Source: an uncultured Bacteroidales bacterium (GTDB lineage Bacteria > Bacteroidota > Bacteroidia > Bacteroidales > Muribaculaceae). Taken from it: DNA of 64,000 nt. The notes below the pieces were generated by a model that saw only the letters and a program-made list of their open reading frames with translations, made no database searches and had not been told where the DNA came from. The stretch covers positions 42,809-106,808 of the forward strand of contig CANPDU010000005.1 in NCBI GenBank assembly GCA_947573135.1, given 5' to 3'. Positions 6,453-24,417 of this stretch are shown here, piece by piece. Position 1 is the first letter of the stretch. The number at the start of each line of letters is the position of its first letter. The translations under genes were made by a program, and so were the position numbers.

Positions 6453-6526
6453 ATCTCCGCATCCGCTCTGCCATCCTATACTAATTTATGCTATTTTAAT
6501 TAATAGCCAAAATATTAAGAGCCGGT

Positions 6527-6553
6527 TTGACACATATGGTCTAACCGGCTCTT
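6527..6553. terminator. Bidirectional hairpin terminator between convergent genes
   Basis: AAGAGCCGGTT / AACCGGCTCTT, 11-bp perfect stem, between lpxB (+) and the 6573 gene (-). Confidence 0.75.
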
Positions 6554-6572
6554 CGAGAATTATTATCGGATG

Positions 6573-9416
6573 TTATTTCACTGCCACTTTCATCGTCTTC
6601 TTGCCGGCTTTTATAAAATATATACCTGCGTTTTCGGGCAGTTTGACATTATCCTTGCCCGACGCGACGACTATGCCGCCAAGGTTATATACAGTAATAC
6701 TCATGCCTGAGGCTTTCGCTGTATTGCCGTCGATTGTGATAGCTTCATCGCCGTCGCTGACTATGTTTTCGATACCGGTAGTAGTGATTCTGAAGCTGTC
6801 ATAGCTATAGCGGTCGGTTAAGCAGTCTGATGTACCGTCGTCGTATATCGTGTATGTCTTGTGTTCTTCGAGCATACCGTTATTCTCATTATATGTATAG
6901 ACATTTTTCTGGTGAGAGTTCCATACCTCCGGGCCTTCATTTTCGCGGCAGGTTGTTTCTTTGACTATTGTTTCGTCAAGTGTTATGCGGTACGCGTTGT
7001 CGCGTTCGATGGTTTGAACCGTTGTCTTTTGTTTAGTTTCATTCGACCATCGGTCTGCTTCTTGTTCAGTACGGCTGATTTTGGCTTGGTTTCCGTTGAT
7101 TTCGACTTTTGTGATATCGCTTCGGCTGATTTCCCAGTCATTCTTTTCAGCGTTCCATTCATGAATTATTTCATTCGTTCCCTGTATTTCACCGCCAAAG
7201 TTGTAATACTCATCTGCAAGCACTACAACATATTCATCATCATATAAACTGATTGGGTTGAGACTATAAGCTGAAATAGTATAAAAATCATATCTGTAAT
7301 GTGAAATTACTGTCTTGTTTTCGCCTATCCAGCAATTGTTTTCTTGATCCCAGCGATAATCGGCAGACATTCTGAAGCTTATACCGTTCTCATCTTCAGT
7401 TTCTTTCGACTCATATTTTCTTTCATTGATTGCGTAACTTTCATCATCCGACAGTGAGCGTGTGATCATCACTGTAATGCCGTCTTCTGTAACATATGAT
7501 TCCTCGATGGCGTTGGCGTATGTTTTAATCCATGTGCCGTTGTCATAATTGTAATAAGTCCGGACATTATTCTTTACTGTTGTGCGGTTTGCTTCGTCTA
7601 CTTTGCCGCTGCCATTTTCGGCGTAGTACCAGTCTGTGCGCTCGATTGTGCCGTCGGCGAGTGTTTTTTGTTCCAGTTTTTCCGATTGATAGAGTTTGCT
7701 GATGTCTTTAGGGTTAAGCACTTCGTATGTCGAAAGTACAAAGTCGTCATTGTCTCCGTAGGCGAAAAGTTTCTCCGATATCTTGAATTCTTTGCCGTTG
7801 TTGAAGCGCGAAGTTGTGATATATTCGGTGATTGATTCGGGTTTGCCGTTGGTGCCTGTCTTGTAGACTTCTCGGAATTTTGCACCGTCTTCTTCATAGT
7901 TAAGCGTATATTCGTCAAGTGATTCCCACTCATCTTCGCCGGCACCCTTAATACTGAATTCATACTCGTCATAGAGCTCGTTGGTCACCTGTCTGATAAT
8001 TTTTTGCAACTCGCCTGTGGCCGAGTAGTATTCATAAAGATAGTAATCCGGACCGACGCTTTGTGATATTTCTTTGACATAGTAGTACGATTTGTCGTCG
8101 TTGATAACTGCAGGATAGAGCTCCCATTCTGAACGTCCGTAATCGCTTTCAATAAGTTCCGCTTTAACGATTTCTATAAGCGTATGACCATAGCTGTTGG
8201 TCGTAATCTCGCATAATCCGTTATCCAAAACGTGATTCTTTACTGACAGTTCATAGACCTTTGTCCAATTTCCGTCAGTGTAATTGTACTGCGTGAGCGT
8301 ACGGTTGAAGTCCTTGGTGTAGTCGATGTTATCTTCTGCCATATCAGGAGAGTAAACTATCTTTTGATATGGTATGAATTTATCGTCTTTATAATTGTAT
8401 TCGATCTCCACGCTGTCGCCTGACGCATCTCTGTAACACTCGTGGATCATAGACCGTTCTTCATCGACATTCCCGTTTTCGTCATAGATTTTGGTGTATT
8501 CTCCTTGTTTGTCGCCAAAAAAAGTTATAGACTCATTGATGAGCCGCTCCGTCTGATTTTCAGCGTTGATCTCATAATGTCTCGCTGTTAGTCTGTCTTT
8601 GCCGATTTCACTCTCCATACGGCTATAACCTTTGTTATAGAAATATGTCGCATAATATTCTTTGGCCGGCTCAATCCATGTGTAACGGGCTTCATTGTTT
8701 ATATTGCCTTCTTCATCATAGCGTACTTCTCTTGTGATTGCGGCCCCGAGGATATCGACACTTGGAGTATTGGCCGTTTGTCCCTGACGGTATTCAAACT
8801 CATAAGAGATTTCTTTGAAGGGTTTTTCTTCTGAGCCGGTGTTATATATTGTCAGACCGGTGACATAATCGTTTTCGATTATGCGCTCTTCAATACTGTT
8901 GACACGCCAGCCATCCCGTCCGTTTTCCTGACTTTCAATCTTACGCGAAAGCCAGCGGCCTTTTCCGTCGGTTGTATATGTGTAACGCACACTACGGTCT
9001 GACTCCTTCATCATCGTACGATAACCGTGATCATCATATTCTATCGTTACGAGGTTGTCTCTCGTTTCTTCTGAGTTTGTGTTTGTATATATGCGGTCAT
9101 AGCTTGTTACAAGCATTGTGTCGACAGTTTTGGTAACGGCATCAGACGCGTCGAGAGCTGTACCTGAGATGCGGGCGGTCGGAACGCTCTTGTGTTGTCC
9201 TGTCTCGCCGGCGGTTTTCCCTTTAGTGAGGTTCTGAAGCCCTGTGTTCATCGACTTCAGATTGTCAAGTCTTAATTCAGCGCCTGGCATCAGATATGCG
9301 GGAGCTTTTTGGTTCGCACGGGCTGCGACGAAGAGGGTGCCCGTCAGTGTAAAACTTAGAAATAAGTAAAATAATTTCATAGTGCGATTTTTTGAATGGT
9401 TCATTATGATGCACAA
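6573..9416 (-). CDS. Large secreted protein with many YD-like repeats and T9SS-type C-terminal sorting domain
   Basis: Signal peptide MKLFYLFLSFTLTGTLFVAARA (likely start about 9380); repeated tyrosine-rich Y-x-Y...W units; C-term SITVYNLGGIVVASGKDNVKLPENAGIYFIKAGKKTMKVAVK. Confidence 0.75.
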   Translation of the reverse strand: MCIIMNHSKNRTMKLFYLFLSFTLTGTLFVAARANQKAPAYLMPGAELRLDNLKSMNTGLQNLTKGKTAGETGQHKSVPTARISGTALDASDAVTKTVDTMLVTSYDRIYTNTNSEETRDNLVTIEYDDHGYRTMMKESDRSVRYTYTTDGKGRWLSRKIESQENGRDGWRVNSIEERIIENDYVTGLTIYNTGSEEKPFKEISYEFEYRQGQTANTPSVDILGAAITREVRYDEEGNINNEARYTWIEPAKEYYATYFYNKGYSRMESEIGKDRLTARHYEINAENQTERLINESITFFGDKQGEYTKIYDENGNVDEERSMIHECYRDASGDSVEIEYNYKDDKFIPYQKIVYSPDMAEDNIDYTKDFNRTLTQYNYTDGNWTKVYELSVKNHVLDNGLCEITTNSYGHTLIEIVKAELIESDYGRSEWELYPAVINDDKSYYYVKEISQSVGPDYYLYEYYSATGELQKIIRQVTNELYDEYEFSIKGAGEDEWESLDEYTLNYEEDGAKFREVYKTGTNGKPESITEYITTSRFNNGKEFKISEKLFAYGDNDDFVLSTYEVLNPKDISKLYQSEKLEQKTLADGTIERTDWYYAENGSGKVDEANRTTVKNNVRTYYNYDNGTWIKTYANAIEESYVTEDGITVMITRSLSDDESYAINERKYESKETEDENGISFRMSADYRWDQENNCWIGENKTVISHYRYDFYTISAYSLNPISLYDDEYVVVLADEYYNFGGEIQGTNEIIHEWNAEKNDWEISRSDITKVEINGNQAKISRTEQEADRWSNETKQKTTVQTIERDNAYRITLDETIVKETTCRENEGPEVWNSHQKNVYTYNENNGMLEEHKTYTIYDDGTSDCLTDRYSYDSFRITTTGIENIVSDGDEAITIDGNTAKASGMSITVYNLGGIVVASGKDNVKLPENAGIYFIKAGKKTMKVAVK

Positions 9417-9433
9417 ATATAACTATTTATTTG

Positions 9434-9634
9434 CTATTTTGTTGTTTTTTTAACATTTGTTTTTGTGCCGTTTTCTCGTTTTATGTTCCGCCCGTGTCGT
9501 TTCAGCGACTCCGCTATTATCCATTGCAGCTGGCCGTTGACCGAGCGGAACTCATGCGCCGCCCATTTTTCGACCGCCTCCATTGTTTCCGGATCGAGAC
9601 GCAGCAGAAACCCCTTGCTTTGTTGCGTGGCCAT
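9434..9634 (-). CDS. Arc-like ribbon-helix-helix DNA-binding protein
   Basis: FLLRLDPETMEAVEKWAAHEFRSVNGQLQWIIAESLKRHGR matches the Arc-family RHH pattern. Confidence 0.75.
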   Translation of the reverse strand: MATQQSKGFLLRLDPETMEAVEKWAAHEFRSVNGQLQWIIAESLKRHGRNIKRENGTKTNVKKTTK

Positions 9635-9651
9635 TGATAGGTTTCCGGATT

Positions 9652-10629
9652 TTACTGATACAGAGATCCGGTGTTGAGCACAGGCTGTGCAGGTTCGTCA
9701 GCGCAGAGCACCACAAGCAGATTGCTCACCATCGTAGCCTTGCGTTCATCGTCGAGCGCCACTATCTGTTCTTCGTCGAGCTGATCGAGAGCCATTTTAA
9801 CCATCGACACCGCGCCTTCTACGATCTTCTCCCTCGCCGAAATTATAGCCGATGCCTGCTGGCGGCGCAGCATCACCGCCGCGATTTCAGGCGCATATGC
9901 AAGATAGTTCAGACGGGCCTCGACAACCTCTATGCCGGCCATTGCCAGACGCTCGTTCAGTTTCTCCTCGAGCTGTTCGTTGATCTCGCTGGCGTCGCTC
10001 CTGAGCGTTATCTCCTTGTGTTCGCCGTTTTCCTCATCATAGGCATAGCGGCCCGTCACTTCGCGCAGGGCGGCGTCGCTCTGTATCCCGACAAACGCGT
10101 TAAGCGCCTTGGCTATCGAATTGGTCAGAGTCGCCGACGCTGCGGCTTTCTCGTCCGTGCTTACTGCGATTGCCGGCACCTGGTCAGCATCCACGTCAAA
10201 CACTGCGCGGTAGGTGTCCTTAACCTTCCACACCAGCACCATGCCTATCATCACCGGATTGCCCACCTTGTCGTTGACCTTGATCGGAGCGATATCCATG
10301 TTGCGTATGCGCAGCGAGATTTTTTTCTTGGTCATGAACGGATTGACCCAGAAGAAACCCGTCTCGCGGTATGTTCCCTGATATTGGCCGAAGAATATCA
10401 TCACGCGCGCCTGGTTAGGCTGCAGCACGAAGAATCCGCACGCTGTGATAATCATCGTAATCAGCCCGATGCCGCTCATCACCCCTGCGAGCCAGTAGTA
10501 TTCGAAGGGCAGAAACACAAACAGCGCCGCTATTATTGCCGGTATTAAAAGCAGCTCCACGGCGAGCATTGCAAAACCGTTGTAAACCTTTCCCTGATAG
10601 GGGACTTCCTTGTCAATTTGAGCTTTCAT
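9652..10629 (-). CDS. SPFH/band-7 domain membrane protein
   Basis: From MKAQIDKEVPYQGKVYNGF; two hydrophobic segments then RVMIFFGQYQGTYRETGFFWVNPFMTKKKISLRIRNMD; C-terminal LNERLAMAGIEVVEARLNYLAYAPEIAAVMLRRQQA. Confidence 0.9.
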   Translation of the reverse strand: MKAQIDKEVPYQGKVYNGFAMLAVELLLIPAIIAALFVFLPFEYYWLAGVMSGIGLITMIITACGFFVLQPNQARVMIFFGQYQGTYRETGFFWVNPFMTKKKISLRIRNMDIAPIKVNDKVGNPVMIGMVLVWKVKDTYRAVFDVDADQVPAIAVSTDEKAAASATLTNSIAKALNAFVGIQSDAALREVTGRYAYDEENGEHKEITLRSDASEINEQLEEKLNERLAMAGIEVVEARLNYLAYAPEIAAVMLRRQQASAIISAREKIVEGAVSMVKMALDQLDEEQIVALDDERKATMVSNLLVVLCADEPAQPVLNTGSLYQ

Positions 10630-10704
10630 AAGTGATATTGTTTTGATATTATTTCGATACAAAAATATATAAACAATTTCACATCTCCAAAAAAAAAAAT
10701 CATC

Positions 10705-11250
10705 ATCCACCCGCGCCTCTGCGTGAAAACAATTTCTGCACTTCGCGCGACATCCCCTAATCGCTTCTCTGACTGACATTCTCCCTTGCGATCTTCGCGC
10801 CTCTGCGCGAGATACCATAAGCCTGGCGTCGAAGCCGCGCAACATCCCTTAATCGTCTCTTCAGCCAGATTTCCCCTTTGCGCTCCCCGCGCCTCTGCGC
10901 GACATCATCTCCCGGCGAAAAAAGCGTCGGAGACGCTCAATATGTTAATTCCCATAATTAGCGCTGAAAGCGTGGTTTATGGGGTGACAGGCGTCACCCT
11001 CAAATATGCGCATCGGAGCCGCGCGACATTCCATAATCGCCTCTCTGACTGACATTCTCCCTTGCGATCTTCGCGCCTCGGCGTGAGATATTTCCGGCTC
11101 TCCGCGCGATGTTACGCCAAGTGCGTCGGAGACGCTCAATATGTTAATTCCCATAATTAGCGCTGAAAGCGCGGTTTATGGTGTTTCAGGCGTCACTCTG
11201 AAAAAGGCGCGTCGGCGACGCGCGACACCCCCTAATCGCTTCTCCCCTCC
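10705..11250. repeat. Compound intergenic repeat array (a 70-bp module plus a ~60-80-bp hairpin-rich module, each recurring)
   Basis: gcgcgacat-cc-taatcgc-tctctgactgacattctcccttgcgatcttcgcgcct at 10745-10814 and 11021-11090, degenerate copy about 10832-10906; gcgtcggagacgctcaatatgttaattcccataattagcgctgaaagcg at 10924 and 11123. Confidence 0.85.
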
Positions 11251-11253
11251 CTG

Positions 11254-11688
11254 CTATTCCAGCGGCTTCCGCATTTTGTTCATCTGGCGTCGGTAGAAAA
11301 CTGTGTCGGGCAGTTTGCTACGGTCAAGCGCGTATTCAAAATATCCCACTATCTCACTATTGCCGGGATTGGTATAATCATACGCTACAAAAATCGAATC
11401 TCCTTCAACTATTTTAGAAAGTCCACCATACCCGGCTCTTCCGCGAAAAATCGAATCACCTACATAAAATTCATATAATTTACCGGGATTACGGTCTAAT
11501 TTAATTTTATAAATAACACCAACCGTATACGCCGTATGGTTGTTCAGACTCTTTGTACGCATTATTTCATAAGGTATCATTAAAGAAAACATGATAATGA
11601 AGCCGGCGGCACAGATATGATCCTCATCATACACCTTCTTTTTCAGATACTTTAATCCAATCATAAATATCTTAGCGAAACTTTTCAT
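11254..11688 (-). CDS. Hypothetical membrane-anchored protein
   Basis: Hydrophobic segment ICAAGFIIMFSLMIPYEIM; no family recognised. Confidence 0.5.
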   Translation of the reverse strand: MKSFAKIFMIGLKYLKKKVYDEDHICAAGFIIMFSLMIPYEIMRTKSLNNHTAYTVGVIYKIKLDRNPGKLYEFYVGDSIFRGRAGYGGLSKIVEGDSIFVAYDYTNPGNSEIVGYFEYALDRSKLPDTVFYRRQMNKMRKPLE

Positions 11689-11804
11689 AACGAGCTGTTT
11701 GGGGGGATTGTTGACCTGGCAAAAGATTTAGACGCTTGAATATTACGAACTTCCTATGTTTAACTTTTTCAACTGATAAATATTGTTACCTATTTGGTAC
11801 CCAG

Positions 11805-12248
11805 TCAATCCACAGCATATAATGTGTAATTCCCATTTCTGAAATCGAATAGACTGGATTTGTATATAGCAAGGTCGAGCCTTTTATGTGTACCTTTCTC
11901 CTGTCCGAAAACTACAATGATTGAATCTGTATGAGAATCATAGAGCGAATCACAACTATAGAGATCTTCAATTTTGCAAGATTTAATATCATCATTTAGT
12001 AATGTATTATAATCCACAACAATACCACCTTCTACTGCGATGCCATCATCATAAATGATGAGATCAGGTATTGCTGAATAAGTTGAGAGCGTATGTCGAT
12101 TAATTAATTCTATACAGATAAATTTTCTACATTGCTCTTTTAAAACCACTCTGAAATTAGAGTTTTCATATATGTATTCTTTTTCTCCTACTATACATGA
12201 TGCAAAAAGGAATAGCAATGCAATTATTGGTTTTAAACGACGATACAT
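11805..12248 (-). CDS. Small putative lipoprotein, candidate immunity protein for the upstream orphan Rhs tip
   Basis: Lipobox-like MYRRLKPIIALLFLFASC; directly downstream of the CHAP-tip gene on the same strand. Confidence 0.5.
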   Translation of the reverse strand: MYRRLKPIIALLFLFASCIVGEKEYIYENSNFRVVLKEQCRKFICIELINRHTLSTYSAIPDLIIYDDGIAVEGGIVVDYNTLLNDDIKSCKIEDLYSCDSLYDSHTDSIIVVFGQEKGTHKRLDLAIYKSSLFDFRNGNYTLYAVD

Positions 12249-12294
12249 CTCGATGTCTTTTACATTAATTAATAGATTGATTGAGGCTTTTTCA

Positions 12295-13428
12295 TTACCG
12301 AGTAGTATGTACTCCTATCGAACGCCCTCTAAGATTAAATTCTGGCAAAGAGATATTTGAGGCAGAATGATTTGTTGGGTAAACATATTTTAATACGTTG
12401 TTTGTGGAATTTGGGGACAAATTAACTGCATCATTTTGATTGCCACCCAATATAATAAGACGACCATCTTTATTCCGACCGACAACAAAACCTACATGGC
12501 TGTAATTCATTATCGCTATAGAGCCGAACTGCGGAATGGAATAAGATTGCCCCCATGTTTTGAATGTATAAACAGCCGCATGATTACTCCCTTCTATGCC
12601 TGAGTTTTCTAAACAAAAGTTGACAAAAGCAGCACACCAAGCTGTTTTATCGGTCTGTGACGCAAGAGTGCCTTTTAATTGAGTATAATCAAAATATTTT
12701 AGAATTTCTGGATTATCGCCTGTTTCTGAAATATCTTTATTCATTTCTTCTACTGCAACATCAATCCATGGAGTATTATTCTCATATGTCATTTTTCCGT
12801 TTGAATTATAAAATTCAGTCATAAGCCCGCTCTCACTATTTCCACGGACATTAATATCCATCCAGATTTTATCTCTTTTATAGGATGTTCCGCGATAAAT
12901 TTCATTTTCAGACAGGACCGAAGTATAATTTTTCTCATTAACATCCTCTCTCCAATTTATATCTCCTTCTTCATTTTCGACCCAATCCTTCCCGTCTTCA
13001 TCCACTCTGTTAATCGGATCGCCGCCGCAGTAGGAATATGGGGATATGGGATAGAATTTCCAGGCAAGCGGGTCGGGGGTCGACCAGTTGCCGTAGGGGG
13101 TGAGGATGCGGGCGCCGAAGTCGTAGGCGTTGCGGCCGCCGGAGTGCTCGCGTTCCTTGCCGCCGAAGAGGTAGCGCTGACCGCTCGGCTCTACCGTCGG
13201 CTCGCCGTAGGGATAATAGGTCGTCTCCTGGACTACATTGCCTCGGTTGTCGGCCACGACGGCATTGTTGCCCTGCCAGTCGGTAAGATAGTACATCGTG
13301 CCGCCCTGAGGATCGAAGTAGCCCCCGGCGAATGCCGAGTATTCGAGCTTGCCGTCGCGGGACACATGCGGCCCGACAGACTCTTTGAGACGGTAATAGG
13401 AGTATTCTTCCTTTATGATAGTCAGCAT
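12295..13428 (-). CDS. Orphan Rhs tip: RHS-repeat-associated core fragment fused to a CHAP/TIGR02594-like amidase domain
   Basis: Core GPHVSRDGKLEYSAFAGGYFDPQGGTMYYLTDWQGNNAVVADNRGNVV...YGARILTPYGNWSTPDPLAWKFYPISPYSYCGGDPIN then TDKTAWCAAFVNFCLENSGIEG...GSIAIMNYSHVGFVVGRNKDGRLIILGGNQNDAVNL. No signal peptide. Confidence 0.8.
   Translation of the reverse strand: MLTIIKEEYSYYRLKESVGPHVSRDGKLEYSAFAGGYFDPQGGTMYYLTDWQGNNAVVADNRGNVVQETTYYPYGEPTVEPSGQRYLFGGKEREHSGGRNAYDFGARILTPYGNWSTPDPLAWKFYPISPYSYCGGDPINRVDEDGKDWVENEEGDINWREDVNEKNYTSVLSENEIYRGTSYKRDKIWMDINVRGNSESGLMTEFYNSNGKMTYENNTPWIDVAVEEMNKDISETGDNPEILKYFDYTQLKGTLASQTDKTAWCAAFVNFCLENSGIEGSNHAAVYTFKTWGQSYSIPQFGSIAIMNYSHVGFVVGRNKDGRLIILGGNQNDAVNLSPNSTNNVLKYVYPTNHSASNISLPEFNLRGRSIGVHTTR
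13009..13378. repeat. Copy A of 370-bp direct repeat encoding the Rhs core
   Basis: Collinear with 15572-15941, same length, same orientation, scattered substitutions. Confidence 0.9.
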
Positions 13429-13481
13429 AATAGATGACTTAATATAATTATTTTAGCACACTCGCAGCTTGTTAATATCAA

Positions 13482-14198
13482 TTATTCATATTGTACGACC
13501 TCTATCTTCTTGTTGAAATCAAGACCTGTCAGGCCATTGGCTTTGGCTATTTCTACAAAGCGTTCGCTTACAAAGGTACCGGAAAAATTAAATTTAAAAA
13601 AATCAAGATCAATTGGGAATGTACCGTTCACTGCGATCCGGTCAACGCCTAAAATGTGCGTATAACCATATATATAATAATCGTCAATGGATTTGAAAAT
13701 AGGAACTTCCGTATCAATCTTTCTATATTGTGTTGAGCCTATTTCATCACCGATTGACTCCTTTTCATACTCGGAAAAACTGCATTTATCCCATATAATA
13801 TAATCAAACTGTTTAAGCCGAAACGTTCCGACAAAATAATAAAGCGTTGGCTTCCCTTTTATATAGATTCTTACAGGGTACACCCTATGATCTCCAATAT
13901 TTAGCTCCTTTAAGCAGCCAAATGCTTTTTTACTTATAAACGGGACAAGAGTATAAATACAGTTAATAAAATCAATTGTCTTGGCTTTTCGTGATAGTTT
14001 GAACTCCCCGATCGTAGGTTTGAAATCAGGGTATGTCAGACCTTTATATATCCAACGTGCAACCTTAAACAGATTACTCTTATCATACGGATAGCCCTCT
14101 TTTAAATAATTGATGTTATATGGACTGATCTTGCCAACGATTTTATCATTGGTAGTTGTATCGGCGCGATAGAATATTTTTTTCTTTTTAAACCTCAT
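13482..14198 (-). CDS. Imm11/DUF1629-like putative immunity protein (paralog 2)
   Basis: ...FISKKAFGCLKELNIGDHRVYPVRIY...DYIIWDKCSF...FVSERFVEIAKANGLTGLDFNKKIEVVQYE; paralogous to 14256-14981. Confidence 0.65.
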   Translation of the reverse strand: MRFKKKKIFYRADTTTNDKIVGKISPYNINYLKEGYPYDKSNLFKVARWIYKGLTYPDFKPTIGEFKLSRKAKTIDFINCIYTLVPFISKKAFGCLKELNIGDHRVYPVRIYIKGKPTLYYFVGTFRLKQFDYIIWDKCSFSEYEKESIGDEIGSTQYRKIDTEVPIFKSIDDYYIYGYTHILGVDRIAVNGTFPIDLDFFKFNFSGTFVSERFVEIAKANGLTGLDFNKKIEVVQYE

Positions 14199-14255
14199 AA
14201 TGTGTTAAATCAAGAATTATTGATTACGTGACGGTTATTTATGCAATTATACTGA

Positions 14256-14981
14256 TCAGATATATTGTACAATCTCTATTTTCTGTTTAAAATCAAGACC
14301 TATCAGACCATTTGCCTTGGCTGTCTCGACAAATCGTTCACTTACCAGTTTGTTAACAAAGGCGTTATAGAATTTGACATAATCAAGCTCGATTGGAAAT
14401 TTTTCGTTTACAGCAATCGATTCTACCTCCGGCCAATGCGTGGCGCTAAAAGCGTCGAAATCATCGACAGATCTGAATACTGGTACTTCGGTGTCGAGCC
14501 GTTTGTCGTAGATGCTGTCAAGGTCGGCACTTTTGAATGCAAGTTCGGTATCATAAAACCGGCATTTATCCCAAATTATATAATCAGCTTGTTTATAAGG
14601 TAGTACCCCGGCAAAAAAATATAATATAGGCTTCAGCCTATGATAGACTCGGACTGGATAAATCCTATGAGTTCCGAAGTTTAACGGTCTAAGACAGTCA
14701 ACTGCTTTCTTACTGAGGAGCGGTTTGTCAAACATTGAGGTGCTTAGAAAATCCGTGGGCTTGGCTGATTTCATAAGTTCTATACCCCCGAGCAGTGGTT
14801 TAGTACGCGGAAAGATGAAGCCTGACCCTATCAGTCTTTGTACATGATATATCCCACGGGGAGTGTCGACATAGCTGTTCATTCCCTTTAGAAATTCGCG
14901 GCACTGCGGAAACACCCAACCTGTATCCTTATCAATTGTATGCTTTGGACAGTAAAATGTTTTTGATCTCTTTATTTTCAT
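14256..14981 (-). CDS. Imm11/DUF1629-like putative immunity protein (paralog 1)
   Basis: ...LLSKKAVDCLRPLNFGTHRIYPVRVY...DYIIWDKCRF...LVSERFVETAKANGLIGLDFKQKIEIVQYI; immediately downstream of the AHH-tipped Rhs gene. Confidence 0.68.
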   Translation of the reverse strand: MKIKRSKTFYCPKHTIDKDTGWVFPQCREFLKGMNSYVDTPRGIYHVQRLIGSGFIFPRTKPLLGGIELMKSAKPTDFLSTSMFDKPLLSKKAVDCLRPLNFGTHRIYPVRVYHRLKPILYFFAGVLPYKQADYIIWDKCRFYDTELAFKSADLDSIYDKRLDTEVPVFRSVDDFDAFSATHWPEVESIAVNEKFPIELDYVKFYNAFVNKLVSERFVETAKANGLIGLDFKQKIEIVQYI

Positions 14982-15007
14982 AATGTTCAGCTTTTTATGC
15001 GAAAAGA

Positions 15008-18000
15008 TTATATTTCCGGATGCTCGTGCGGTAAAAAATCACGCTTTCCTTTGTTCTCGGGTTCGTTCAACATCTTTCTCAATTGATCCAAAATTGGCGG
15101 CACAGTCTGAAATTCCAGATCATTAATTTTGACATCAGGATTATCTATTATTTTTTGTCTGATTTCTTCAACGATGCGGTTAAAATCCTCTAATGGGATT
15201 TTGTAAGGGCTATCGGCATCTTTATTCACATTATCTAATTCTTTAGATGCTTTCTCTAATTTATCAGCGACCCTTTCGGTATATTTGCCATGCTTAGCAT
15301 GTCTGCCAGTACCCGTCGTTTTTGAAAATTTTTCCACAGGGATCTTATTGCCTTTCCCGTCAAGTTTAAAGCCTTGCCGGATAGCATCCTGCAATAGTTG
15401 ATTCTTACCACTTAATGAACGAGGAATAATATGATGATTTTCAATTGGATTTGGCCCCTTAGGAGCAACACGTGGAATGACAGGTTTTGATGCGGATAGC
15501 AGAAGTGGATTGTTCATACCTAACAGCGGAGGAGGTAAAACAAATACTTGTTTTCCGTCGGGATCTATATTGTTAATCGGGTCTCCGCCGCAGTAGGAAT
15601 ATGGGGAGATGGGATAGAATTTTTCGGCGAGCGGGTCGGGGGTCGACCAGCTGCCGTAGGGGGTGAGGATGCGGGCGCCGAAGTCGTAGGCGTTGCGGCC
15701 GCCGGCATGCTCGCGTTCCTTGCCGCCGAAGAGGTAGCGCTGCCCGCTCGGCTCTACCGTCGGCTCGCCGTAGGGATAACAGGTCGTTTCCTGCACTACA
15801 TTACCCCTATTGTCAGCCACGACGGCATTGTTGCCCTGCCAGTCGGTAAGATAGTACATCGTGCCGCCCTGAGGATCGAAGTAGCCCCCGGCGAATGCCG
15901 AGTATTCGAGTTTGCCGTCGCGGAACACATGCGGACCGACATACGACCGCCGCGACTGCAGCTTATACTCGCTGTCGGGATATACGGTCTCGGGCGTCGT
16001 GAGCATGGCTTCGGGAACCTGCGAGTACTCCACCGAGAGCTTGCCGCCGAGTCCGTCATAGGTGATATGCTGCCGCTGCCCGCCCGTCAGGTAGACGTCG
16101 GCAGGCTGATTGAGACGGTTGTATTTTATCTGAAGAATGCCGCGCGAGGGATCGGCCGTGAGGTTGCCGTTGGTGTCGTATGTAAAGCCTGTGACCGTGC
16201 CCGAGGCGCTCACGCCCGTGCGCCCCTCATAATCGGCGCCCTCGCTGTCGGCCTCCATTTTGGTGAGCCGGTTGTAGGTGTAGGTCATCGTCAGGTCGCT
16301 CTGAACTCCGTAGACGTTCTTACCGCCTACGATGTCGACGATGCCGCGCCGCATCATCGTTTTGATATTGGCGTTGCGGTCGTAGGTGTATTCGGTCGAG
16401 AAGTCGGGCGCATCCTTAAGGCTTATGGGTCCCGAGCTTCCTGATGTCGAGGCCGACAGCCGGCCGTGGCTGTCGTAGCTGTAAGCGGTGTGGCGGCCGT
16501 CGCGTGTGCGCCCCGATATCTTGCCGTCGTAGCGCGCCGTGCTGCCGCTGCCGCTTTCGGCGTAGTGGAGCTTCTCGTTGAAAATGGTCGCCGTGTAGGT
16601 CGGTGTCAGCGATGAGGCGCGCTGCGCGCCGCCCGTCTCGCCGAGCTGTATCACCGGCGGCAGTCCTGACCGCACGACCGTAGCCGACGACGAGGTGAGC
16701 CATCCGTTGGCGTTATAGCCGAATGTCCGCGTGATACGCCCTGAAAGCAGTGTTTCGGATATGCGGCCGGCATCGTCGTAGGTGTACTCAAAGCGCGCCG
16801 TGTCGGCTCCCTGTCTCACCGTGACATCACGGAGATGGCCCGACGAGTAATAGCGCCGGGTGATGCGCTGCTCGGGCGCCGACAGGCCGTATTCGGTCAC
16901 AAAACGTTCCTCGACGGGCTTGCCCTCGTAGTCGTAGCGCGTGAAACGGCAGTTTTCGGGGAAATCGATATATGATCCGCGGGCCACGCGCACCTCGCGG
17001 CCGAGGTTATCGTAGTGGGTGACGGTCAGCCGCTTTTCGGCGAGAACGGCCGTCAGCAGCCCTTTTGCATCTGTCCGCGGCGTCGGGAAGCCTGCCGGGG
17101 GTGTGTATGACGCCCATCCGCTCTCGACGGAAGACACAGACGCGTAGTCGTCATAATAACGGGCTTCGGCGAGTTCGGTGAGGTTGAAATTCGTCGGCGC
17201 GCCGATAATGATGTAACCTCCGGTGGCATCGGTGACCGGCCGCGATGACGGCGCTGCCGTCATATACAGCGTCTGCATGTTCCCGACAGTCTGCTCTGTC
17301 GCTGAAGCCAGAGACTGAACCACTTCGCGGCCCAGTCGGTCATAGAAATGGAACAGCCAGCGGCCTTGAGCGCGCAGATTGCCGTCCTGCTCAGCGAAAA
17401 GGCGCCCGCCGATGTCGTAGCGGCAGAGCGTCGGCTCTCCGCCGGGCAGCGACTTTGACACGCATCTGCCGCGGGCGTCATACTCATAGCTGAACGTCGC
17501 TTTAACAGGAACAGTACGCGAGGTCTGAAGCGGCTGTATCACGTTTGTCAGATCGCCGAAGTCGTTGTAGACATAGCGTGTGTCGTTCCAGTCGCCGGCG
17601 CAGCCTTCGCGTGTCATGACCGTCAGACCCCGGCGGTCGGTGAAGGTCATCGTCACGTGGCCTTCCTCGTCGGTGATCTCCTCGACGGTCAGAGTGCCGG
17701 CCGGATAGTTTGTCGCGCCACGGACCTGAGTGGCGCTGTAGGGCTTATAGTTGTAGCAAGAATAATTGCCCGATACGGTGTTGACGAGACGCCGCACGGT
17801 CACCCGGCGGTCGGCGTCGTGCCATTCCTTGCCGGCTTTACGCGATCCGGCGGTGACGGCAAGGGGCGACGCTTCGTAGTAGGTGGTCGAATATGCGTAT
17901 GATGTGCCGTAAAGACTGCGGGCGGCAGTCGAGATCTCAGACGCCGAAGGGTGTCTGCCGTTGACATGGACGGGCGACCACGAGCGGTAAGGCCTGTCCA

Positions 18001-21000
18001 TGGCGTCGTACTGCGTCAGAGCGGCATAATAGCCGCCGTCCTTTATGGTCAGGGGCGGTGTAAAGCGCGCGGCTGAGATACCGCCTCCGAAATCTGACAC
18101 GAAAGCCTCATTCGGGTTCGGAGCGACGGTCAGTCGCGACGACTCGCGGCCGAGGCCGTCGTAATTGATTATTTCGCGTATGGACGCCGAGGTACCCGTC
18201 GCCGACTTGAACACGCCCGATGTCATATAGTTATGGCCGTCATCCTGCACGTGATAGCTGTAGCCCTCGACCGGACCGTGGCCGTCGATCGCCGTCCTGA
18301 TCAGGCGCCCGGCCGAGTCGTAGCCGTAGGTCGTCGTCAGCCCGTCGGGGCGACGCAGCGACGCCATGCCGACAAGAGGTTTCCACAATACCTTGGTCAC
18401 ATGCCATCCGGCCGGCAGAGCCGGTGTTACCAGCTCGGCTGAACCGTTGGTGAAATTGGGCGAGGAACTGTATGCTGCCGCCTGTGCATACCTGACGCCG
18501 TCGATGCGGTAGACGGGATAAAGGCCGCCGTAGCCCCACAGATATGTTGTCACGACGCTGTCCTCGCCGCGGTACTGGCGTATGTTGCCGAAACTGTCGT
18601 AGTCGTATTCGCCGGCGAGCCATTCCGTAGCTGCGCCGCGTCTGAGCCATGTTTTCTCCGGACGGTAGACGCGGTTGCCGTAATGCTTCATCTGGTGACG
18701 GACGGTAGTGACGGCGTCGCCGAACGTGCGGCGTGTCTGTATCGGAACGGAAACGATATTGGCGCTGACCATCGACCGTTCGACGGATGTGCCTGAGGCC
18801 GAGGGATAGGTGAGGTCTATGCGTTCTCCGCGGCTGTCGCCGGGAACTGTGGTCACGACCGAGGTTATGATCGAGGTGCCCGGTTTGTATTCGTAAGTCT
18901 CTGTCTGCGAGAAATCACCGTTCTCGAGATGCCGTGTCACCGTCTTCGACTTCAGCCGCTCGGATTGAAGATAGATAGTATAGGGTTCGACCCGGTAAGG
19001 GCTGCTGCCGTTATAAAGTTCCGGAGAATAAACCTCACACAGATCAATCTGTAACGCTTCGGTATCTGTACCACCGAAAGATCCGGTGTGTTGGAACAAC
19101 CAGCGCAGATAATGACCGTTTAAGAAATCTGGCGCTTCGAGCGAATTTGTGAGCGTCTGTATAAGATAGCGCGATATATGTGTATTGACAATTTGGCCAT
19201 TCTGAACGCCTGATAACTGAATGATTTTTTCATAGGAGCATATTTCGTCCGCCACGGGACGATATGTGCCGGAAGAATCGGTCTTATATGTTTTAGTTCT
19301 GATAAGCTGAGCTCCTTTGCTGAACACATTGTTCATCTGTACCGGATGGGAATACCCCCACTCCCGGTATTCGGAGTCGGACGGCAGTGTACGGTTGAAA
19401 CTGTACTCTGTCTTGCCTTCGGGATAGGTTTCGTTGACACGCCTGTACCATATAGCATCCTCACCCGTGCGGTTGGTCATGTAATTGGAACTATAACCGA
19501 CATTGACCATCCTGTAAAAATAGCACTGGGTTTCAAATGTTCCCGGGTTCATCAGGCCGATGCCTTTTGTAACAGAGATAAAACTTGCGGCCGACGGAAC
19601 AGATACAACCTGAACGGAATCATATGAATACCGGCGGATATGAGGGGATCTGTCATTTTCACCGGCATATGTGGCAATGCTTTTTATCCTAAGACCGCCG
19701 CCAGAGTCAAGTTCGGGATCATATTCGTCTTTAATATTGCCTGACGAGGGCAGCTTCGTCTTAGGAAAACGATGAGGCTCATAATCAAACTCACTGTAGC
19801 CTCCTGTCGGATATGTGATTCTTTTAATCAGTCCGGCCTTCATCTTCTCCGCGTCTACAGAGCGGTCTGCGTCTCCGATACTCTCATAATAGCTGTAGCC
19901 GTTACGTTGTTGCTGTGACTTTATGGAAAGGGCGGGAGTTAGAGAAGTGTTATTTTTTCCATTGTAATATCCCCACCAGTCCGTACTAAGTCCGGCGCGT
20001 TCGGTTGCGGACCAAATTTCATTGTAGGCGAAGCTATAGACATTGTCCTCATTGATAGAAACGGATTGGAGCAATTTCTTTTGCGAACCGTCTGACCCGT
20101 ATTTCAAAATGACATGATTTACAAGTTCGCTTTTATTATTATAGACTGATATTTCTGAAAGAAATTTTTCAGTATATCGGAAGCTGATAGAGCCCCCCGG
20201 GAATGTAACGTTTTTTAAATGTAACCTTGCTCTATATGCTCCGTTATTTACAAATTGCACGTCTGACGAGGGGCTGATCCACCCGACTGAAGGATCGTAA
20301 AATTTATTGTAGGCATCTCCGGGCGAATAAGAATCCTTGCCGGTTTTCCCTCCAAGTATACTTATGCGATCATGCGTGAAAGACTCCCAGTCAGTTTCAA
20401 TGGTACGTCCTGACGGAAGCTTAATCGTTTTGAGAGCCCAAGCCGTATGATAAGGTGTTGTACTATATTCTTCGTCAGGTGAATAATCCTCGAATTTATC
20501 TTTGAAAGTATAGACAATACCTGTTGCATCTGTGGCTGTTATAACTCCAAGCCCGGCAGTTCCGGTAATCTTTATCTCGTTGTCACTGCCGCCACCTATA
20601 AAATCCCATCCGCTGCCGTTATTGACGATTATTCTTGTGTATACACCTGATGGGAGCGATATCATAAATATGTCCTTCTCAGGGTCATACCTGTTTTCAG
20701 TATAGTCTAATGTTCCGCCGGAAGGTGTGTTGTCATTGCACATTGCCGAGAATGTCATTTCGGGAGAGAGAGCCAGGTCTCCCGGAACGTCACCTTTATA
20801 TTCAAATCTTTCATCACAGCGTCCCCGGACTGTGCGAGTGACCTTTAACGCCGGCGTAAGACTCCATCCATAGCCGCACGGATAAGGATCGTCTGTAGGC
20901 TTGATGCCCGAGGTGTGATAATTGAGGGTGAACGGTATTTGCAGTCCCTCGACATCGATCGTATAGAGCGGTATCGAGAGGTTGACAGCGCCAGTGGCCA

Positions 21001-21169
21001 GTGCCGGCTGGGGACTCTGATAGCGGATCTGCTGCGCGCTCGACGGGGTCGGCGGAATGATCTCGTTGGTCTGCGGCGATATCATCAGCCCTGACGAACC
21101 TTGCGCCTGCGCCGACAGCACAGACAGCACAAATGCGAGCAACAGCGATATTATATTGTAGTTTTTCAT
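15008..21169 (-). CDS. Secreted Rhs/YD-repeat polymorphic toxin with C-terminal AHH-type nuclease
   Basis: Signal peptide MKNYNIISLLLAFVLSVLSAQAQG; YD repeats (YDGLGRESSR, YDNLGREVRV, YTYNRLTKME); RHS core ...DPLAEKFYPISPYSYCGGDPINNIDPDGK; tip NHHIIPRSLSGKNQLLQDAIRQGFKLDGKGNKIPV...GRHAKHGKYTERVADKL. Confidence 0.9.
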   Translation of the reverse strand: MKNYNIISLLLAFVLSVLSAQAQGSSGLMISPQTNEIIPPTPSSAQQIRYQSPQPALATGAVNLSIPLYTIDVEGLQIPFTLNYHTSGIKPTDDPYPCGYGWSLTPALKVTRTVRGRCDERFEYKGDVPGDLALSPEMTFSAMCNDNTPSGGTLDYTENRYDPEKDIFMISLPSGVYTRIIVNNGSGWDFIGGGSDNEIKITGTAGLGVITATDATGIVYTFKDKFEDYSPDEEYSTTPYHTAWALKTIKLPSGRTIETDWESFTHDRISILGGKTGKDSYSPGDAYNKFYDPSVGWISPSSDVQFVNNGAYRARLHLKNVTFPGGSISFRYTEKFLSEISVYNNKSELVNHVILKYGSDGSQKKLLQSVSINEDNVYSFAYNEIWSATERAGLSTDWWGYYNGKNNTSLTPALSIKSQQQRNGYSYYESIGDADRSVDAEKMKAGLIKRITYPTGGYSEFDYEPHRFPKTKLPSSGNIKDEYDPELDSGGGLRIKSIATYAGENDRSPHIRRYSYDSVQVVSVPSAASFISVTKGIGLMNPGTFETQCYFYRMVNVGYSSNYMTNRTGEDAIWYRRVNETYPEGKTEYSFNRTLPSDSEYREWGYSHPVQMNNVFSKGAQLIRTKTYKTDSSGTYRPVADEICSYEKIIQLSGVQNGQIVNTHISRYLIQTLTNSLEAPDFLNGHYLRWLFQHTGSFGGTDTEALQIDLCEVYSPELYNGSSPYRVEPYTIYLQSERLKSKTVTRHLENGDFSQTETYEYKPGTSIITSVVTTVPGDSRGERIDLTYPSASGTSVERSMVSANIVSVPIQTRRTFGDAVTTVRHQMKHYGNRVYRPEKTWLRRGAATEWLAGEYDYDSFGNIRQYRGEDSVVTTYLWGYGGLYPVYRIDGVRYAQAAAYSSSPNFTNGSAELVTPALPAGWHVTKVLWKPLVGMASLRRPDGLTTTYGYDSAGRLIRTAIDGHGPVEGYSYHVQDDGHNYMTSGVFKSATGTSASIREIINYDGLGRESSRLTVAPNPNEAFVSDFGGGISAARFTPPLTIKDGGYYAALTQYDAMDRPYRSWSPVHVNGRHPSASEISTAARSLYGTSYAYSTTYYEASPLAVTAGSRKAGKEWHDADRRVTVRRLVNTVSGNYSCYNYKPYSATQVRGATNYPAGTLTVEEITDEEGHVTMTFTDRRGLTVMTREGCAGDWNDTRYVYNDFGDLTNVIQPLQTSRTVPVKATFSYEYDARGRCVSKSLPGGEPTLCRYDIGGRLFAEQDGNLRAQGRWLFHFYDRLGREVVQSLASATEQTVGNMQTLYMTAAPSSRPVTDATGGYIIIGAPTNFNLTELAEARYYDDYASVSSVESGWASYTPPAGFPTPRTDAKGLLTAVLAEKRLTVTHYDNLGREVRVARGSYIDFPENCRFTRYDYEGKPVEERFVTEYGLSAPEQRITRRYYSSGHLRDVTVRQGADTARFEYTYDDAGRISETLLSGRITRTFGYNANGWLTSSSATVVRSGLPPVIQLGETGGAQRASSLTPTYTATIFNEKLHYAESGSGSTARYDGKISGRTRDGRHTAYSYDSHGRLSASTSGSSGPISLKDAPDFSTEYTYDRNANIKTMMRRGIVDIVGGKNVYGVQSDLTMTYTYNRLTKMEADSEGADYEGRTGVSASGTVTGFTYDTNGNLTADPSRGILQIKYNRLNQPADVYLTGGQRQHITYDGLGGKLSVEYSQVPEAMLTTPETVYPDSEYKLQSRRSYVGPHVFRDGKLEYSAFAGGYFDPQGGTMYYLTDWQGNNAVVADNRGNVVQETTCYPYGEPTVEPSGQRYLFGGKEREHAGGRNAYDFGARILTPYGSWSTPDPLAEKFYPISPYSYCGGDPINNIDPDGKQVFVLPPPLLGMNNPLLLSASKPVIPRVAPKGPNPIENHHIIPRSLSGKNQLLQDAIRQGFKLDGKGNKIPVEKFSKTTGTGRHAKHGKYTERVADKLEKASKELDNVNKDADSPYKIPLEDFNRIVEEIRQKIIDNPDVKINDLEFQTVPPILDQLRKMLNEPENKGKRDFLPHEHPEI
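15572..15941. repeat. Copy B of 370-bp direct repeat encoding the Rhs core
   Basis: See 13009-13378. Confidence 0.9.
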
Positions 21170-21171
21170 AG

Positions 21172-22215
21172 TCAGCGGATTATAATAATTTCTTTTTTAG
21201 GTTGAACCGGAAAGCCCGCCACCCCAATGGCCGCGATATACTGTCCGGAGCGCAATGATGAGCAATCAAGCGAAATTTCATCGGCTGACCCGCTTGATTC
21301 TGCTGACTTGTGAAGATAAAGGCGACCGGCGGCATCCATGATGTCAAGAGAAATATTAAGCCCGGAAACAGGCATTTCTATACTGACAGTCACGTTTCTG
21401 CCGTCATATTTGAGATCCGCTCCGTCAAGGGCGCCGCTGACAGCTTCAGGATCAACAGAATTATGATCGAATGGCTCATCGCCTGATTTTTCGCTTCTGT
21501 CACATGCTCCTCTGTCGGGAAGATATGCCGAAGACGAAAGCGGAGCAGTATCGGCTGCAATAGTTCCCGAAGCATAAACCGATCTCTGAACGGCAAGCGG
21601 AAGCAGCGATGAGGCTCCGTCACTGTCGTACCACCGATAAGTTTCTGTAGTTAAATATGTTTCAGCTGCAACACTGTCATCGGGGAATGTCGCGGCTGTG
21701 TACCGGCGCTCCCGCGTTACAGTCACATTACGGATCGTATCCCCCGGTGTCATTATGAGTGTCCCGACGCACGGAGCACTCATAAATTCAAGTGTGCCGT
21801 TCTCTTTGATTGCAAAACGTTTGCCGCCGCCGGTGCCCGACGCATCAAACTTATATCCGCCGTTTCCGGCGCCGGATCGTAAAGGCAAAGACGCAACATA
21901 TACCGGGTTACTTGCTGTGATTGTCGTAAGACGGTCCTCTTCACCTAGATACAATATTGAATCACCGCTTATGCCGTACCAGTACCGACGTCCTCCGATT
22001 GTCTCGGCCATTAAAGAATCGCCATAAACAGATATCAGAGTCCGCGCTTTGTCGTCAGACATCCATTGCTGCGAAAAATCCCATGTCCGCGCCTGCAGAA
22101 TGTCCCCTTTGAGAGGAGATAACTCAATTGGCATCGCAATTTCCTTCGTCATCGCCGGCAACGCGATTAAAAAAGAAAAAGCGAACATACACAAAGCTAT
22201 TCTGAGTCGATTCAT
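21172..22215 (-). CDS. Secreted protein with T9SS-like C-terminal domain, translationally linked to the Rhs gene
   Basis: Signal peptide MNRLRIALCMFAFSFLIALPAMT; C-term GLNISLDIMDAAGRLYLHKSAESS...LRSGQYIAAIGVAGFPVQPKKEIIIIR; stop lies 2 nt before the Rhs ATG. Confidence 0.65.
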   Translation of the reverse strand: MNRLRIALCMFAFSFLIALPAMTKEIAMPIELSPLKGDILQARTWDFSQQWMSDDKARTLISVYGDSLMAETIGGRRYWYGISGDSILYLGEEDRLTTITASNPVYVASLPLRSGAGNGGYKFDASGTGGGKRFAIKENGTLEFMSAPCVGTLIMTPGDTIRNVTVTRERRYTAATFPDDSVAAETYLTTETYRWYDSDGASSLLPLAVQRSVYASGTIAADTAPLSSSAYLPDRGACDRSEKSGDEPFDHNSVDPEAVSGALDGADLKYDGRNVTVSIEMPVSGLNISLDIMDAAGRLYLHKSAESSGSADEISLDCSSLRSGQYIAAIGVAGFPVQPKKEIIIIR

Positions 22216-22482: not shown

Positions 22483-23049
22483 ATGAGAATTCATCGCAAA
22501 TCTCCTTTTTCGGCCAACTTTACTCGCCGCTGTCTGATCGATCTGCCTTCGGTCGGGGCTGCCGCTTCGCTTCCCTGCACCATGCGACTTGCCGCCAAAG
22601 ACATCATCGAGGAAAATAAGTACAATCCTGATGAAAATTATCTCCCCATGCTTTGCCGTGTCCGGCTGTATGACCGCAACGACAAGCTGATCTACACTTC
22701 GCGCCGCTACGCTGTGGGCGGCGAGTTCCCTCAGGTCTTCTTAGAACTGGGATATTATTACCGTTATGTCGCCACATGCCGGCTCTGGACTCTTGAAGTC
22801 GACACTGACAGGATTGTGCCTTTCAGGCTGCGCAGCCGTGCCGTCCGCGCCGAGGTTGTAGCCTGTCCCGACGTGCCCCGCGACTACCGTCCGCGCGAGC
22901 GCGTGATTAAGACGATCACTCTTACTCCGTGGGCGACGCGGCTGTTGCTGCCCGTCGATCCGTCGAAAGATAAAAAATCAAAACGCACTGACAGTCCGTG
23001 GGGTCGCCGTTTGCGCCTCTCCCGAAAAAATTGTAAATTCGCCCTTGCT
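22483..23049 (+). CDS. Uncharacterised protein; frame continues without a stop into tilS
   Basis: MRIHRKSPFSANFTRRCLIDLPSVGAAASLP...; N-terminal 189 codons of the 1400-aa ORF. Confidence 0.55.
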
Positions 23050-24417
23050 ATGAAACGTAAGTACGACAAATCGACTCTTACTGACGCTGTTGCCGATGCC
23101 ATCAGGCGACATTCGCTGCTCGACCGCGGCGACAGGGTCATCGTGGCTCTCAGCGGCGGGGCCGATTCTGTCGCGTTGCTGTCGGTGCTCACCGGTCTGG
23201 GCTATGACTGCGTGGCCGCTCATTGCAATTTCCATCTCCGCGGCGACGAGTCGCAGCGCGACATGCGCCATGTCGAGGATCTCTGCCGCCGGCTCGGTGT
23301 CGATCTTATTGTAAAGGACTTCGATGTCGCTGCGCGACAGGCCGCTACGGGCGAGTCTGTCGAGATGGCATGCCGTTCGCTCCGCTATGAGTGGTTCGAC
23401 TCTCTTGTCGCCTCTGAACATGCCCGAGCGGTCGCTGTCGGCCATCACTGTGAGGACAGTGTCGAGACTATTCTGCTCAACATGATGCGCGGCACCGGTA
23501 TCGACGGTCTGCTCGGCATACGCTACAAGCGTGACTGTATCATCAGGCCCATGCTTGCATGTTCGCGTGAGAAGATCGAGGAGTATCTTGCGGCGCATGA
23601 TCTGACCTATGTCACCGATTCCTCCAATCTTTCAGACGACTATCAGCGCAATTTCGTGCGCAACCGTGTCCTGCCTTTGCTGTTGAAACGCTTTCCCGGA
23701 GCGGTCAGAGCCATACTTGCCACTGCCGCCAATCTTCAGTCGGTCGCAAACATCTATCACAAGGCCATTGCCGCATACCGTGACCGTTATCTCGACCGCG
23801 AGGGGCATATAGATATCGCCGGACTCGTTGCCGAAGCCGGTGACGACGCTCCCGCCGTGCTACGCGAATTTCTGAAGGACATTGGCATCTCTTTCACGCA
23901 GTGTCGCGACATTGTGGCCTCGGCCGGAAAGTCTGGACTGCGTTTCGAAGCCGATGACGGCATAGTCGTCGAACTTGACCGCGGTGTGCTGACCGTGAGC
24001 CGTCCTGAAGTCCTGCGGCGCGACGACGTATATCCCGTAAGACTCGACCGCGACATTCTGCAACCGGTCGATCTCCGTGTCAGTCGCCATGATATTGCCG
24101 AATTCCGACCCGTGCGAGATCCTGACACCATCTATCTCGACGCCTCGGCCCTCGACGATGACCGACTCTGGACACTGCGGCGCTGGCGTCTCGGCGACCG
24201 CATCCGCCCGTTCGGCATGAAGGGTAGTCGTCTCGTCAGCGATCTCTTTGCCGAAGCTCACTATTCTGCCGCCGACAAACGCAATGCCTGGCTGCTCACA
24301 TGCGGTGACGAAGTCGTATGGGTTGTCGGGCTGAGGGCTTCAGCTCTCTATCCGGTGACTCCCGAAACCCGTGATTTTATTAAAATTAATTACAAACATA
24401 AAAATACATTTCAGACC
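23050..24417 (+). CDS. tilS: tRNA(Ile)-lysidine synthase; frame continues without a stop into the next gene
   Basis: PP-loop VIVALSGGADSVALLSVL; HCNFHLRGDESQRD; HHCEDSVETILLNMMRG; RNFVRNRVLPLL; C-term RLGDRIRPFGMKGSRLVSDLFAE...WVVGLRAS. Confidence 0.93.

What the first reader, a model, noticed from the sequence alone, without database searches (positions are those of the whole stretch)
11254..22215. Bacteroidales Rhs polymorphic-toxin island with two unrelated toxin tips and their candidate immunities
Six or seven consecutive minus-strand genes run T9SS-tailed partner, 2053-aa secreted Rhs with AHH nuclease tip, Imm11-like, Imm11-like paralog, orphan Rhs tip with amidase domain, lipoprotein, membrane protein. 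Seen directly: gene order, motifs, shared core. Established: Rhs/YD proteins carry exchangeable C-terminal toxins behind a conserved core, with immunity genes following. Inference: this is a two-warhead locus delivered by a signal-peptide/T9SS-type route rather than T6SS. It is the best candidate in the window for an undercharacterised system.
Basis: partly seen in the sequence, partly recalled or inferred. Interest (0 to 1): 0.8.

Follow-up and report, generated by a model that had tools for sequence, protein, structure and literature searches.

The report
Rhs toxin operon with T9SS-tailed partner
This Bacteroidales bacterium carries a swappable protein-toxin locus (a DNA-cutting tip with its antidote genes, plus a spare cell-wall-cutting tip) next to a conserved partner gene that looks like a ticket for the type IX secretion system, which suggests how such toxins leave cells that seem to lack the usual injection machine.

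Summary
The locus is a Rhs polymorphic-toxin operon. The live Rhs (15008-21169) has a signal peptide and an AHH nuclease tip. Three other genomes carry this tip, and all three have an Imm11-like gene directly downstream, so that toxin-immunity pairing is well supported. The second tip (TIGR02594/CHAP) is a fragment without a signal peptide. It shares 374 bp at 94% identity with the main gene, so it reads as a spare, not a second active warhead.

Three things go beyond the finding. (1) The upstream partner with a T9SS-type tail is conserved at about 22-57% identity across the family, and Rhs follows directly in 15 of 20 loci. The genome has SprA and no detected T6SS sheath gene. (2) A second Rhs locus in this genome matches in the first ~100 aa and the core, but differs in the tip and in residues ~105-738. 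Topology tests show this N-terminal module predates the split from another genus, so Rhs is polymorphic at both ends. (3) Two genomes split the protein at residue ~975.

AHH-Imm11 pairing and orphan tips are known; the T9SS partner has a TANFOR precedent; the two-ended polymorphism looks new. No export or toxicity was tested.

The parts
21172..22215 (-). Secreted partner protein, 347 aa: signal peptide, unknown middle, C-terminal T9SS-type (type A-like) Ig-like tail at residues 275-335
   Evidence: ORF; Por_Secre_tail 0.0021 on residues 275-335; 7 of 18 homologues hit Por_Secre_tail, best 4.9e-6; C-terminal 7-strand domain is the only part of the model with pLDDT about 53-79, matching Ig-like DUF3244 folds; followed by Rhs in 15 of 20 family loci
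15008..21169 (-). Full-length Rhs, 2053 aa, signal peptide MKNYNIISLLLAFVLSVLSAQAQ
20858..21169 (-). Rhs residues 1-104: signal peptide and conserved 5' segment, nucleotide-identical over residues 1-60 to the second Rhs copy
18956..20857 (-). Rhs residues 105-738: variable N-terminal module, 39% identical to the paralogue; GC 45% against 55-61% for the flanks
15560..18955 (-). Rhs residues 739-1870: YD-repeat core; about 2.4 kb nucleotide-identical to the second copy, then about 95%
15011..15520 (-). Active toxin tip: AHH (HNH/EndoVII superfamily) nuclease, motif ENHHIIPRS; Pfam match 15218-15463
   Evidence: PF14412 6.4e-10; homologous tips in three other genomes
14256..14981 (-). Imm11-like immunity gene A (cognate candidate of the AHH tip)
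   Evidence: position; an Imm11-like gene directly follows the homologous tip in G053, G141 and G062
13482..14198 (-). Imm11-like immunity gene B, 46% identical to A (extra immunity)
12295..13428 (-). Orphan Rhs tip cassette, 377 aa: core end plus TIGR02594/CHAP amidase-type tip, no signal peptide
12382..12771 (-). TIGR02594 domain of the orphan (catalytic-type C, H, N in AWCAAF, SHVGFV, GGNQ)
   Evidence: 1.9e-26; residues read from the translation
13008..13381 (-). Repeat in the orphan: 94% identical to 15571-15944 of the main Rhs (candidate crossover site)
15571..15944 (-). Matching repeat in the main Rhs gene, just upstream of the tip junction
11805..12248 (-). Lipoprotein-like protein (FASC lipobox), candidate periplasmic immunity to the orphan tip
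   Evidence: one solid homologue, 39%, in another genus, not next to such a tip
11254..11688 (-). Small membrane protein of unknown role, possibly a further immunity gene
   Evidence: no family match

Best explanation
This is a chromosomal Rhs polymorphic-toxin operon for competition with related bacteria. Partner and Rhs are both exported by Sec. The partner's C-terminal T9SS tail then takes the pair, or anchors the Rhs, across the outer membrane through SprA. The conserved first ~100 residues of Rhs, which stay constant together with the partner, are the likely contact. The YD-repeat shell encloses the C-terminal tip. The variable module at residues 105-738 most likely recognises the target cell or its entry receptor, because it varies while partner and core do not. 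The AHH tip enters a neighbour and cuts nucleic acid; Imm11-like protein A protects the producer, and its 46%-identical paralogue B gives extra or cross-immunity. The orphan TIGR02594/CHAP cassette with its lipoprotein is a spare warhead: a crossover in the 374-bp repeat would place it on the core. Shown here: gene order, domains, tip-immunity co-inheritance, partner-Rhs linkage, allelic N-module, presence of SprA. Inferred: export route, partner-Rhs contact, target recognition, nuclease activity, immunity, and switching.
For: AHH tip and Rhs repeats. Tip homologues (39-46% identical) in G053, G141 and G062 sit on different Rhs cores, and each is directly followed by an Imm11-like gene; G062 has three in tandem. 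AHH-Imm11 is an established pair, including in Bacteroidetes (PMC3482391) and Myxococcus, where extra imm11 genes and cross-immunity at 46% identity are reported (PMC12077181). Partner homologues in 16 of 198 family genomes and 10 of 30 genera; Rhs directly downstream in 15 of 20 loci, with different tips. SprA present, at least 14 proteins with T9SS tails over the cut-off, VipB not found. Two Rhs copies share the 5' end, partner (99%) and core but not N-module or tip. Topology test: N-module groups window with L060 and C16 with L055 (p-AU 0.999; window+C16 rejected, 0.002), core groups window with C16 (p-AU 1).
Against: No secretion, toxicity or binding data. The Rhs has no T9SS tail and the partner's own tail scores below the curated cut-offs; it did not appear among the TIGR04183 hits in its own genome. 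TssC (PF17541) was not found, but that search had no positive control. The structure models are too poor to support the Imm11 fold or a partner-Rhs contact. The lipoprotein-orphan pairing rests on position and compartment logic alone.
Confidence: 0.66

Rival explanations
1. Same toxin operon, but the Rhs leaves the cell by another route (for example a surface lipoprotein pathway, vesicles or cell lysis), and the partner is an independent T9SS surface protein, such as an adhesin, that merely shares the operon.
For: Rhs lacks a T9SS tail; partner tail is sub-threshold; two partner-like genes in G128 lie without a downstream Rhs.
Against: Linkage persists at 22-31% partner identity with a gap of a few bases to 69 bp in most loci, and where the gene order is reversed in G062 the partner-like gene still abuts a Rhs N-half.
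Confidence: 0.25
2. The two Rhs copies look two-ended only because flanks were homogenised by gene conversion, or because a short-read assembly merged near-identical repeats; residues 105-738 are simply fast-evolving and not a swapped functional module.
For: About 2.4 kb is nucleotide-identical in the two copies; several contigs end near Rhs or immunity repeats; low GC of the module is shared by all relatives, so it does not indicate recent transfer.
Against: Fast evolution alone does not make the paralogue modules group with different genomes: window+C16 is rejected (p-AU 0.002) and window+L060 / C16+L055 preferred (0.999). Gene conversion of the flanks is compatible with, not opposed to, an old allelic module.
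Confidence: 0.25
3. The locus is decaying: orphan tip, extra immunity gene and membrane protein are remnants of earlier tips, kept only as immunity memory, with no switching.
For: A truncated core followed by an Imm11-like gene without a tip on contig C33; a lone Imm11-like gene on C46.
Against: The orphan frame is intact with catalytic-type residues and still has a recombination-length repeat, close to the 522 bp at 95% that recombines in Salmonella (PMC3967940).
Confidence: 0.3

Closest known systems
Rhs/WapA YD-repeat polymorphic toxins with orphan tips (Salmonella rhs main/orphan, PMC3967940)
   Same: Conserved core, exchangeable C-terminal tip, immunity gene downstream, orphan tip with a several-hundred-bp repeat to the main gene
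   Different: Sec signal peptide and T9SS-tailed partner instead of T6SS; a variable N-terminal module as well
TANFOR-domain polymorphic toxins of Bacteroidetes (PMC7073777)
   Same: Signal-peptide toxins thought to use T9SS, AHH-type tips among others, T9SS-tailed proteins encoded next door, T9SS-positive genomes
   Different: No TANFOR match found; YD/Rhs architecture; the neighbour is one conserved ~350-aa family without SprB match
AHH-Imm11 pairs of Myxococcus xanthus (PMC12077181)
   Same: AHH nuclease tip followed by an Imm11-clan gene, with extra imm11 copies in some loci
   Different: Delivered there by T6SS or outer-membrane exchange; the Imm genes here are below the Pfam cut-off
TIGR02594/CHAP amidase-type domains
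   Same: Curated model hit with C/H/N residues
   Different: Here a silent orphan cassette; the candidate lipoprotein immunity has no family

Membership tests
Rhs polymorphic toxin | YD/RHS repeats and Rhs core domain | tested here: met
   PF05593 5.5e-14, TIGR01643 5.9e-14, TIGR03696 2e-9
Rhs polymorphic toxin | Variable C-terminal toxin tip behind a conserved core | tested here: met
   Paralogue with near-identical core carries Toxin-JAB1 instead of AHH
Rhs polymorphic toxin | Cognate immunity gene downstream | tested here: met
   By co-inheritance in 4 of 4 loci; function not tested
Rhs polymorphic toxin | Tip is toxic and neutralised by immunity | not testable with these tools
   Needs expression and rescue assay
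T6SS Rhs effector | PAAR/VgrG-type N-terminus and T6SS in genome | tested here: not met
   Signal peptide, no PAAR match; VipB not found with working E. coli control; TssC not found but without a positive control
T9SS cargo (the Rhs itself) | C-terminal type A/B sorting domain | tested here: not met
   C-terminus is the AHH tip; no sorting-domain match
T9SS cargo (the partner) | Signal peptide plus C-terminal sorting domain | tested here: inconclusive
   Own match E 0.0021 below cut-off; 7 of 18 homologues match, best 4.9e-6; Ig-like C-terminal fold at moderate confidence
T9SS cargo (the partner) | T9SS machinery in the genome | tested here: met
   SprA 2717 bits; at least 14 tails over cut-off; other T9SS components not searched
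TANFOR class | TANFOR domain TIGR02542 at the N-terminus | tested here: not met
   No hit at E<=1 in the NCBIfam scan; that this model is in the library was not verified
Imm11 (PF07791) | Match over gathering score | tested here: not met
   0.052 for B, none for A
Imm11 (PF07791) | Encoded next to an AHH-type tip | tested here: met
TIGR02594 | Match over curated cut-off | tested here: met
   93 bits vs 70.55

The most novel reading that the evidence does not exclude
Bacteroidales have a two-component T9SS route for Rhs toxins: a small T9SS-tailed partner carries a tail-less Rhs across the outer membrane, and the Rhs is polymorphic at both ends, with an old, exchangeable N-terminal recognition module choosing the target and an exchangeable C-terminal tip killing it. 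The two halves can even be separate secreted proteins.
Probability: 0.3. Interest if true: 0.78.

Novelty: new variant of a known kind. Interest (0 to 1): 0.56.

Why it matters
How signal-peptide Rhs toxins of Bacteroidetes get out of the cell is open; a 2020 study could only speculate about T9SS for the TANFOR class (PMC7073777). A dedicated partner family found in ten genera, and adjacent to Rhs in most of its loci, makes this directly testable by single-gene deletions. A second variable module at the N-terminus, older than the split between host lineages, suggests that target choice and warhead evolve as separate exchangeable parts, which would bear on strain competition in the gut.

Tried and rejected
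T6SS delivery: rejected on present evidence (signal peptide; VipB not found; TssC not found but uncontrolled). TANFOR membership: no match. Phage or defence-island origin: no PADLOC or PHROGs hits for the genes scanned. Structured RNA: no Rfam hit. Structure of Imm11-like protein A: pLDDT 31, discarded. Partner model: only the C-terminal ~95 residues usable; its fold search gives Ig-like/DUF3244 domains, which are consistent with but do not prove a T9SS tail. Solved-structure searches of tip, immunity and orphan: no credible relative. A partner-profile scan of genome contigs was not possible because the alignment is too diverged; scanning with the Rhs core gave one relative, L055. Lipoprotein-orphan pairing by co-inheritance: only one solid homologue, near a contig end and not near a TIGR02594 tip, and no relative of the orphan tip in 397 genomes. 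GC of the N-module as evidence of recent transfer: dropped, since all relatives show it.
Full report
Observation. The 2053-aa Rhs has RHS repeats (5.5e-14), DUF6443 and an AHH nuclease domain at residues 1903-1984 (6.4e-10). The 377-aa orphan has a Rhs core end and a TIGR02594 domain (1.9e-26, over cut-off) that also matches CHAP. Core sharing between orphan and main gene is 351/374 bp. The two genes called Imm11-like are 46% identical to each other, but only one reaches Imm11 at all, and below the gathering score (E 0.05); both give weak matches to Gmx_para_CXXCG (0.02, 0.24), a family in the same Pfam clan as Imm11 according to PMC12077181.

Toxin and immunity. A search of 397 genomes of the family found the AHH tip in three other genomes. 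In all three the tip sits on a different Rhs core and is directly followed by an Imm11-like gene: one in G053, one cut by the contig end in G141, and three tandem copies in G062. Tip identity is 39-46% and immunity identity about 22-32%. Since Imm11-like genes were found in only 6 of 397 genomes at the threshold used, this co-inheritance is very unlikely to be chance. AHH with Imm11 is an established pair, listed for Bacteroidetes by Zhang et al. (PMC3482391). In Myxococcus, loci with one or two extra imm11 genes and cross-immunity at 46% identity are reported (PMC12077181), which offers a reading for the second copy here.

The second tip. The orphan begins at an ATG without a signal peptide, so it is unlikely to be exported as it stands. 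Its repeat (13008-13381 against 15571-15944) is comparable to the 522 bp at 95% identity through which Salmonella fuses its orphan tip to the main rhs gene (PMC3967940). It is therefore read as a spare cassette. The following gene has a lipobox-like FASC and would sit in the periplasm, where a peptidoglycan-cutting tip would act; this pairing is inference. Its one solid homologue lies near a contig end without such a tip.

A genome-wide arsenal. The window lies in a 2.85-Mb, 56-contig genome. Rhs core ends occur on contigs C5, C16, C33, C30, C38, C21 and C6. C16 holds a second full partner-Rhs operon followed by three more orphan tips; the tips include Toxin-JAB1 (several), Peptidase_M91 and an HExxHxxGxxH protease-like tip. 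Further Imm11-like genes lie on C33, after a truncated core without tip, and C46.

The partner. Homologues of the 347-aa partner occur in 16 of 198 genomes and 10 of 30 genera of the family, mostly at 22-31% identity. In 15 of 20 loci a Rhs ORF follows directly; full loci show different tips and immunity genes behind it, and L055, from an uncultured Bacteroidales metagenome-assembled genome, has the same partner-Rhs pair with another tip. The tail matches Por_Secre_tail weakly here (0.0021), but 7 of 18 family members match, best 4.9e-6. The modelled C-terminal domain is a seven-strand Ig-like unit at pLDDT about 53-79; the rest of the model is not usable. The genome has SprA (2717 bits) and at least 14 other proteins with T9SS tails over cut-off. 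VipB was not found with a control that rang; TssC was not found but without a working control. The precedent is the TANFOR class, whose toxins also sit next to T9SS-tailed proteins (PMC7073777). The Rhs has no TANFOR match. A literature search for YD repeats with type IX secretion returned nothing, within the limits of the library.

Two-ended polymorphism. The window and C16 Rhs are nucleotide-identical over residues 1-60, about 39% identical in protein over residues 105-738, nucleotide-identical over about 2.4 kb of core, and unrelated in the tip. Their partners are 99% identical. The window module is closer to L060 (another genus of the family) and the C16 module to L055 (an uncultured Bacteroidales): the topology joining window and C16 is rejected for the module (p-AU 0.002) and accepted for the core (p-AU 1). 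So the module alleles are older than the split between these host lineages, while flanks were exchanged or homogenised. The low GC of the module is a general property and not evidence of recent transfer. Because module and tip vary while partner, 5' end and core do not, target recognition is the most economical role for the module; this is inference.

Split forms. In G129 and G103 the Rhs is two secreted proteins split at about residue 975-980, the first next to the partner, the second with its own signal peptide, core and tip; in G062 a partner-like gene follows, rather than precedes, a Rhs N-half. This supports a functional division between a partner-linked N-half and a core-tip half.

Limits. 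No function was tested. The assembly is fragmented and several contigs end near Rhs or immunity repeats, so the linkage of particular modules to particular tips should be checked with long reads. Four sequences underlie the topology test, one of them partial. The T9SS route is supported by context only.

Noticed in passing
L009 (G000 C16:34000-53900), 6375-19585: Second full partner-Rhs operon in the same genome, with JAB-like tip and three more orphan tips (protease-like, Peptidase_M91, Toxin-JAB1), each followed by small lipoprotein-like or secreted proteins.
   Followed up: partly
L067 3572-10019; L068 9561-16064; L072 4775-9408: Rhs split into two separate secreted proteins at about residue 975 in two genomes (L067, L068), and a partner-like gene placed after a Rhs N-half in a third (L072).
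   Followed up: partly
L009 14343-14406, L024 5862-5925, L022 3543-3601: A ~60-bp element, 85-89% identical, encoding a signal-peptide-like stretch (ALLSVLTMSG), at the 5' side of orphan cassettes or their remnants; possibly a cassette joint.
   Followed up: partly
L009 16302-17516 and L025 4629-5696: The same Peptidase_M91-type tip is present twice in one genome, fused to different core ends.
   Followed up: no
window 22483-26685 +: One 1400-aa ORF appears to join a TilS-like tRNA-lysidine synthetase to a secreted glycoside-hydrolase-like protein without a stop between them.
   Followed up: no
window 6573-9416 -: 947-aa protein of no known family with a C-terminal stretch that resembles a T9SS tail, close downstream of the island.
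   Followed up: no
L055 13400-13960: Relative's Rhs tip with an LSCHSG motif that recalls caspase/CHAT-like proteases but matches no family.
   Followed up: partly
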